Source of the DNA: Lota lota
Lineage: Eukaryota > Chordata > Actinopteri > Gadiformes > Lotidae
Length of the DNA: 64,000 bases
Direction: 5' to 3'
NCBI GenBank assembly: GCA_026745465.1
Contig: JACYXH010000472.1
Span: 696,001-760,000 of the forward strand
Positions 317 through 3,300 of this stretch are shown here, one piece after another. The position numbers and the translations under genes are program-made. The notes beneath the pieces are model-generated. The model was not told where the DNA came from, did not search any database, and was given only the letters and a program-made list of their open reading frames with translations. Within the stretch, counting starts at the first letter, position 1, and the number at the start of each line of letters is the position of its first letter.

Positions 317-3300
317 GTGAGACACACACACACAGATCCGCACACGCACACACACACACACACACACACACACACACACACACACACACACACACACACA
401 CACACACAATTCCATAAATGAGTTAACTTAGTTTGCTTTGTTAGGCTCACTCGTGTGTGTGTGTGTGTGTGTGTGTGTGTTTGAATGTGTGTGTATGCAT
501 GCTTGTATGCCTGTGTGTGTGTTAGACCAAGCTACTCTCTCCTAGGCCAGGTAGCAGATACTGACCTCTACAGACCAGTGGAGGAATATAACCAGGTACA
601 GCAGCAGCGCTCTATAGACACCTTTTAGCAAACTAAACTGTAAATCCTATAGCTTATACTCAGAGGCCAGAAGGCAGGCTGCTGTAAAACAGGAGAGGTA
701 CAGTGCTTGTGTTGCTACATGGTCCTAGAGAACAACAGTGTGAAAGACTACAGCCCAAAAGGCCGTTCAAGCTCTTACTGAATATTAAAAGTTGGATGTT
801 TAGTTTGAGAATTAAATTAAGTGATTGATTTATTATTAATGATTTATTGATTGATGGTAGCTTGATTGATCGACAGGTGGAATAGGTGTCAGGTGTTATT
901 GGATTGATTAATTGATTAAATGATTGATGAATTATTGATATTCATTGAATGATTGATTGAGAGGGGAAACAGGTACCATTTGTGATTGGATCGATCCATT
1001 GATTAAATTATTGATTGATTCATGTTATTGGTTGATGTATTGATTGACAGGCGAAACAGGTGCCAGGTGTGATGATTTTCCGCTCCTCTGCTACTCTATA
1101 TTTTGCCAATGCTGAGATGTACCAAGACGCTCTGGCAGAGAAGGTACACACACACACACACACACATACAAACACACAGACGCACACACACACATACACG
1201 CACACACACATATAGAGACATGCATGCAAACATACAGATTCACAAGCACACGCCACACATACATAAGCAGATAAATAATTGTATACAGAAAATGTAAGTA
1301 TATATTCCCATAGGCCCACATCCATATACATACATCTACATCCTCCAAGCTATTCTAGATATTGTCGGATACTCTTTGACACGCTAATAACCATCCAATT
1401 CGTCTTGACATTTCACCATCTCAGACAGGCAGAGCACAGAGGAGCATATTGTCTGAATGTCATCCTCTACCCTCCTTCCTCTTCCTCCATGCTTTTGTGG
1501 ATGACAAGCGACAAGGCAGGGAGAGAGGGAGAAGGTTTTCAGAGAGTTTACAGAATGGTTCATTCATTAGCAACACTAATTTATTTCAAATGTTAAATGT
1601 TAAAAACCTGATGACACAATACAAATGCTGTTCTACGGGCTGGACCGCCTATAGTGGGTCAGAATGATGTGGACTCCCTGCAGGTTTCTGTTGCCCTAAC
1701 TGTGCTCATCTTCCAGACGGGCTTGGATATCACCAGCATCCTATCGGCCAAGAAGAAGCTGGAGGCCAAGAGGAAGAGACATGAGAAGAAGGAAGCCAAG
1801 AGGGCAAAGAAGGCTGCTGAAAAGGACCGGGAGTTGGTAATGACATTACTACTTACCTGTTATATACACAGGGCAGGAGGGTGTGGTTACAGTGTTCGAC
1901 TCCCAGTCGAAAGATACTGGTTTAGATCCCCAGTGTTCGTAGGCATCCATGAGCAAGATGCCTAACCCTACCTGCTCCTTAAAAACAGTATCTGACATCA
2001 CTGTGTCACTTTGGATAAAACATGTTTTTCCATTTAACAGACACTTTTATCCAAAGTGACTGTTCCTTTTAGAGACATGTAATTTAGGAGCAGGTAGGGG
2101 GTTAGGGCATCTTGCTCAACAATAACTACAGGTCTGAACCCAGAACCTTTGGGCTGAGAGTCAAACACCCTCACCACTACTAGACCATCCTGCCCTCTAG
2201 AGAGGATACACGGAGCTTCAGATGCCCACTACATGCTCCAGCTAGTTCAATAAGTTTCGTTTAGTTCTTAAAGTCCACTCTCTATGGGGGTTGACAGCCA
2301 ACAGGGATTGTGCATCAGAATGCATCATGGGATTTTTTGTTGCCGATACGCCGCCATTCTGTGATGCCTCGAGAAAGTTGTAGTACTGTAAAATCCTAAA
2401 TAAACGTAAATATGCCGTAACCTAGGCTAATCAAACCTTTGTTTTGCCATGTCTTGCATGAGAAACGCTGTGGCAGTTGTCACTCCATTATGAGCAATGA
2501 TTTCACGATTATTTACTAAAAACAATGACCAAACACCATTGCTACCAATAGCGGTCATTGTGATGTGACATCACGATGTACAAGCTCTATAGACCTTTAT
2601 CACAGAGCTGTAACAGTAGGGACAAAGCACAGGTGTAGCTCATTAAGTTAAGGATGGTTCTGTAACCATGCCACTACCCGTAATCAGCATCATGAGATGC
2701 ACCTGTGTTCGCCCCTACCATTACACCTCTGTGGTGAAGGCCTATTACAGTGACTAATGATTATTTTCTCTATACTGTGATGCCTCTTCTTGTCCAGCAG
2801 GGGGAGCCGGAGTTGGAGAAACAAAAGGAGATCGCCACCATAGAGATGAAAGAGGACCTTCGAGACCCATCCCTCCCCCAAGCTGTCATCTGGATCTCAG
2901 CCCTGTCAACTTCCTGGACACCGTGAGCGTCAAAACAATACGCAACGTGAGGGTCTCGCACACACACACAAACACACACACACACACACACACACACACA
3001 CACACACACACACACACACACACACACACACACGCACACACCTACACACATGCGCAAACATGCGCGAATACACACACACATACAAACTTACTTACATACA
3101 AACATACATACATACATATATATGTTAATGCAGGTATAATTTCACACTAAATATGAAAAGTTATAATTCTTATAATTGAATACAAAAATGAAAGTATACA
3201 GAGAGATATATTCCTATAGGCCAGCAGTTGTGCACCCATTGGACGACCTGCACTACTAGACAATCACTACTACTGTATTTCAAATCCAAGCTAATTGTCT

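What the first reader, a model, noticed from the sequence alone, without database searches (positions are those of the whole stretch)
2798..2946. One-base frameshift in the STAS core exon of the slc26a6-like gene
Seen: the exon reads in one frame to QAVI and then to a TGA at 2924-2926, while the conserved strand [18 protein letters not shown] continues in another frame. The exon length (146 or 149) is not divisible by three although both neighbours are phase 0. Inferred: one base is missing near 2890-2893. If real, the protein ends inside STAS and loses its trafficking/CFTR-interaction domain and PDZ ligand; a paralog could compensate. The gene is otherwise intact, so recent loss, a polymorphism or an assembly error are all possible.
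Basis: partly seen in the sequence, partly recalled or inferred. Interest (0 to 1): 0.7.

Follow-up and report, generated by a model that had tools for sequence, protein, structure and literature searches.

The report
One missing base in fish slc26a6b
In this codfish-like genome assembly one copy of an anion-transporter gene lacks a single base in an otherwise intact coding sequence, which is either a sequence error or a recent loss-of-function allele, while two sister copies are unbroken at the same place.

Summary
Exon 2798-2946 is 149 nt between introns that both need phase 0. It reads to QAVI (2890), leaves two bases where every relative whose alignment I saw has a whole codon, resumes in another frame at 2893 ([18 protein letters not shown]), and hits TGA at 2924-2926. 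The window's genome (G000, 575 Mb) could be searched. The gene has 10 coding exons upstream of the window and ends normally at 7030 (ATSF, PDZ-type); 17 of 18 coding exons found are open in frame. It matches the cod gene published as SLC26a6b: both qPCR primers nearly match, and the predicted amplicon is exactly 126 bp. Two paralogs (contigs C376, C175) carry the same STAS strand in one frame. Unusual substitutions are not in excess (37 of 250 sites; paralogs 39 of 252 and 29 of 242), so an old pseudogene is unlikely. If the base is truly absent, nonsense-mediated decay is expected rather than a stable truncated protein. No reads are available, so consensus error and recent or segregating null allele cannot be separated; I favour error slightly (0.50 against 0.43). 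Recoding or splice rescue has no support. Biologically ordinary.

The parts
210..316 (+). slc26a6b coding exon (last transmembrane part), in frame with the exon upstream of the window
526..595 (+). coding exon (L)[23 protein letters not shown]
1051..1143 (+). coding exon [31 protein letters not shown] (start of STAS)
1717..1836 (+). coding exon, basic intervening sequence of STAS, ends phase 0
2798..2946 (+). broken STAS exon, 149 nt; frame 1 open to AVI
2891..2892 (+). place of the lesion: two bases where relatives have one full codon
2893..2946 (+). continuation of STAS in the other frame ([18 protein letters not shown])
2924..2926 (+). premature TGA met by frame 1
3729..3783 (+). coding exon [18 protein letters not shown], starts phase 0
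5923..6071 (+). coding exon, end of STAS, open
7007..7030 (+). last coding exon DMPATSF and normal stop; PDZ-type C terminus

Best explanation
The feature is a single absent base, at 2891-2892, in the consensus of an otherwise intact and constrained slc26a6b gene. Slightly more likely than not it is a residual one-base consensus error of a long-read assembly, and the animal's gene is whole. Shown: the anomaly is one isolated indel, every other exon found is open, and the gene shows no decay. Inferred: that the sequencing rather than the animal lost the base.
For: It is the only defect seen in 2033 nt of coding sequence and 18 exons found. The downstream exons and the C-terminal ATSF are kept. 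No excess of changes at sites where human SLC26A6 and the other two copies agree: 37 of 250, against 39 of 252 and 29 of 242 for the paralogs. The assembly gives one consensus with one full-length match to this locus, so no second haplotype confirms the base. It is probably a long-read assembly (contigs up to 9.8 Mb among those listed); that it is a published burbot assembly is a guess: its contig N50 of 2.01 Mb is stated in PMC8650494 (passage), its 575 Mb size and PacBio method are recalled. That such assemblies keep residual one-base indels is general knowledge.
Against: The lesion is not in a homopolymer (context GTCATCTGGATC), where long-read errors concentrate. Frame breaks do not look common in this assembly: 29 of 88 connexin rows cover 200 or more of 225 profile positions in one frame without a stop (about 20 kb); 7 of the 88 rows hold an internal stop, of which one (C135) is near full length and has an out-of-frame remainder, the others being short pieces that I did not resolve (150 of 175 candidates scored; the count favours whole genes). 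The mgll exons and first prkar2a exon matched in the window show no break.
Confidence: 0.5

Rival explanations
1. A real one-base deletion: a segregating or recently fixed null allele of slc26a6b. The frame is lost in the STAS strand after the intervening sequence and 11 foreign residues follow before the TGA. The mRNA is mostly destroyed by nonsense-mediated decay, and any protein made lacks the rest of STAS and the PDZ end. The two other slc26a6 copies remain.
For: The lesion lies in non-homopolymer sequence. The stop lies 20, 75 and 224 nt before the three following junctions. Two paralogs without the lesion exist, which could make loss tolerable. In cod the gene published as SLC26a6b had no detectable transcript in anterior intestine (passage in PMC4889603).
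Against: No second lesion and no relaxed substitution pattern, so if real it must be recent. No reads, no other individuals.
Confidence: 0.43
2. Old pseudogene or long-lost copy.
For: The frame is broken.
Against: 17 of 18 exons found are open and joinable in frame; 37 of 250 changes at sites where the others agree, between the values of its sister copies.
Confidence: 0.03
3. The gene works as it stands: translation shifts back by one base near 2890, or the broken exon is skipped (phase 0 to phase 0, in frame).
For: Skipping keeps the frame to the normal stop.
Against: No canonical slippery heptamer at ATC TGG by inspection; the paralogs need no such step; no acceptor listed inside the exon restores the frame; skipping removes part of the STAS core.
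Confidence: 0.02

Closest known systems
Atlantic cod gene published as SLC26a6b (ENSGMOT00000002392, primer table in PMC4889603)
   Same: Forward primer matches 18 of 20, reverse primer 20 of 21 across spliced exons, and the predicted amplicon is 126 bp as published.
   Different: Only the primers were compared; whether the cod gene has the extra base is unknown here.
Paralogs in the same genome, C376 and C175
   Same: Same STAS strand (HSIILDLTTANFIDTV and HSIILDLSTTSFVDTV). Reverse primers place C376 near cod SLC26a6c (18 of 20) and C175 near cod SLC26a6a (21 of 22).
   Different: Frame continuous through this strand in both.
SLC26A6, PDB 8opq
   Same: STAS halves align on both sides of the lesion (101.7 bits).
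   Different: Has a leucine where the window has two bases. A prestin entry (7v73, 114 bits) scored higher than SLC26A6.

Membership tests
SLC26A6 (fish slc26a6b) | C-terminal STAS domain | tested here: met
   Pfam STAS 55.3 bits for the two frames joined by X, cut-off 22.6; 32.6 bits for the part after the lesion alone; no family for the exon in frame 1 alone
SLC26A6 (fish slc26a6b) | SLC26 transmembrane domain upstream | tested here: met
   10 coding exons upstream of the window match recalled human SLC26A6 in order and frame
SLC26A6 (fish slc26a6b) | Closer to SLC26A6 than to other SLC26 members | tested here: inconclusive
   On the STAS part a prestin scored above SLC26A6 (114 against 101.7 bits). 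Cod SLC26a6b primers match. Cod SLC26a5 primers had 7 or more mismatches, but against the window part of the gene only. No tree was built
SLC26A6 (fish slc26a6b) | PDZ-type C terminus | tested here: met
   ends ATSF; that this fits a PDZ ligand is recalled
Pseudogene | Disabled reading frame | tested here: met
Pseudogene | Relaxed constraint or further lesions | tested here: not met
Assembly error | Reads disagree with the consensus | not testable with these tools
   no reads available

The most novel reading that the evidence does not exclude
If the genome is burbot, the freshwater member of the cod order (a guess from assembly size and cod primers), this is a very recent or segregating natural knockout of slc26a6b in a fish that no longer needs seawater-scale sulfate and bicarbonate secretion, caught before any second lesion.
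Probability: 0.1. Interest if true: 0.45.

Novelty: new member of a known kind. Interest (0 to 1): 0.15.

Why it matters
Mainly as a caution: a single missing base in a reference assembly would make annotation call an intact transporter truncated or lost. If real, it would be a natural null allele of one of three slc26a6 copies in this fish, useful for asking which copy secretes sulfate or bicarbonate. (If it is an error, it is not a real feature of the animal.)

Tried and rejected
Considered and rejected: an alternative acceptor inside the exon (none of the 15 AGs listed gives the needed phase); a second copy of the exon in the window (tblastn of the pieces finds only the known exons and one weak match at 42547-42612, E 0.92); an old pseudogene; a duplicate haplotype of the locus in the assembly (one full match; the other 31 matches are 92 bases or shorter).

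Led nowhere: relatives in bacterial and viral contig collections (286 and 46 pattern matches, none confirmed); a script to measure connexin open frames from fetched loci misread minus-strand loci and was dropped; the 7tm_1 control (149 rows, 147 of 981 candidates scored, best first) is biased towards unbroken genes and is not used as a rate; the first relative-rate count (window copy 30 of 211, C376 24 of 205, C175 35 of 216) included intron read-through at exon ends and was replaced, whose paralog peptides were put together by hand from match output and lack some exons; a paper with fish species assays held no burbot primers in the passages seen (PMC6353101). Listings were seen as listings, apart from the papers named with a call number. 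Frame-error controls with two Pfam families (PF01762, PF03953) and one DNA query did not complete. The 10 kb further upstream (L026) gave no match.

Exon limits (208-316, 526-594, 5922-6070, 7006-7027) were off by one to a few bases; hold the corrected ones.

Full report
What is there. The exon at 2798-2946 (+) has canonical borders (ccag|CAGGGG ... CGCAAC|gtgagg) and is 149 nt long. From phase 0 it reads [31 protein letters not shown] to 2890, then [11 protein letters not shown] and TGA at 2924-2926. From 2893 another frame reads [18 protein letters not shown] to the donor and joins [18 protein letters not shown] in phase 0. Bases 2891-2892 stand where relatives have one codon: SLC26A6 (8opq) and three prestins in the 4 alignments printed of 16 PDB hits, and both slc26a6 paralogs plus two more distant SLC26 matches in the same genome.

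The whole gene. The window lies in an assembly of 575,287,041 bases in 867 contigs, at C472:696001-760000. I took the 20 kb upstream; only the nearer 10 kb gave matches. A script found an in-frame junction with GT and AG at each of the 12 junctions tested; it admitted only in-frame, stop-free junctions and ranked them by similarity to human, so a break would have shown as no junction or a poor one. The join to the exon at 1717-1836 was checked by translation only. The most N-terminal coding part was not found. After the broken exon, three exons run to a normal stop at 7030 with the end ATSF. Thus 17 of 18 coding exons found are open, and one base is short in 2033 nt.

Which gene. The STAS pieces match SLC26 proteins; the top PDB score is a prestin (7v73, 114 bits), with SLC26A6 second (101.7 bits). 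The cod qPCR primers printed for SLC26a6b (PMC4889603, passages) match the spliced gene at 18 of 20 and 20 of 21 bases, with the published amplicon length of 126. Cod SLC26a5 primers had 7 or more mismatches, but were compared with the window part of the gene only. The neighbours are mgll and prkar2a. Three slc26a6 genes (a, b, c) are described in eel and the a, b, c classes in salmon (PMC8215749 and PMC8495805, passages).

Paralogs. A protein search of the genome gave 12 matches: six in the window gene, two on C376, two on C175 (minus strand), and one each on C129 and C522 (more distant SLC26 proteins). The STAS core exon of C376 and of C175 is in one frame through HSIILDL. I did not test every exon of these paralogs; some of their junctions were not resolved.

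Age. Over 540 aligned columns, sites where human and two copies agree but the third differs number 39 of 252 for the C175 copy, 37 of 250 for the window copy and 29 of 242 for the C376 copy. For STAS alone they are 9 of 42, 10 of 43 and 5 of 38. The window copy is not decaying faster than its sisters as a group. If the deletion is real it is recent.

Consequence if real. The stop is 20, 75 and 224 nt before the three following junctions. By the usual 50-55 nt rule (established knowledge) the mRNA is a decay target. Any protein would end within STAS. In SLC26A6 the domain-swapped cytoplasmic parts, an extended N terminus and STAS, form most subunit contacts, and the intervening sequence lies between helix C-alpha-1 and strand beta-4 (PMC10328499, passages); that the lesion is in beta-4 follows from its position just after that sequence (inference). 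Skipping the exon would keep the frame but remove this strand.

Error or allele. No reads are available. As a rough control, 29 of 88 connexin rows cover 200 or more of 225 profile positions in one frame without a stop (about 20 kb); 7 of 88 rows hold an internal stop, one of them (C135:2052355) near full length with an out-of-frame remainder, the others short pieces not resolved (150 of 175 candidates scored; the count favours whole genes). So breaks are not common, but even one false break in 100 kb would give hundreds genome-wide, comparable to or above the number of true ones (inference from general knowledge). The lesion is not in a homopolymer, which speaks mildly for a real change. I give 0.50 to error and 0.43 to a real recent allele.

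Species. Not established. A gadiform is likely from the cod primers. The size (575 Mb) fits the burbot assembly of Han et al. 2021 as I recall it; that paper is not held, and PMC8650494 (outline and passages) gives its contig N50 of 2.01 Mb. That paper's own burbot assembly is 583.78 Mb and a third is 538 Mb (PMC13011446, passages).

Literature. Listings for slc26a6 with teleost and STAS domain (2 papers), for at least three of slc26a6, paralog, teleost, intestine and Gadus morhua (15 of 2,130 listed), with mgll and prkar2a (none), and with pseudogene, fish and frameshift (2 papers, one read in passages) showed no report of this lesion; the library is partial and only passages were read.

Noticed in passing
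10644-29873 (+): mgll (monoglyceride lipase) gene; matches at 10665-10775, 16556-16663, 19415-19549, 27205-27315, 28082-28174, 29216-29440 and 29778-29873, no frame break seen in them.
   Followed up: partly
39433-39685 (+): First coding exon of prkar2a (PKA RII-alpha); a weak candidate for a second exon lies at 63878-63910 ([12 protein letters not shown] 1.3).
   Followed up: partly
2700-2764: Part of a dispersed repeat: 26 of the 32 matches of the genome search fall here, at 82-93% identity on both strands.
   Followed up: no
9151-9193 and 11144-11185: Very long homopolymers, 43 G and 42 C; 4.6% of the window is in dinucleotide-unit runs of 16 bases or more as the script counted them.
   Followed up: no
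G000:C135:2052355-2053388 (L055): A connexin copy with an internal TGA and an out-of-frame remainder near an open neighbour on the same contig: a likely pseudogene.
   Followed up: no
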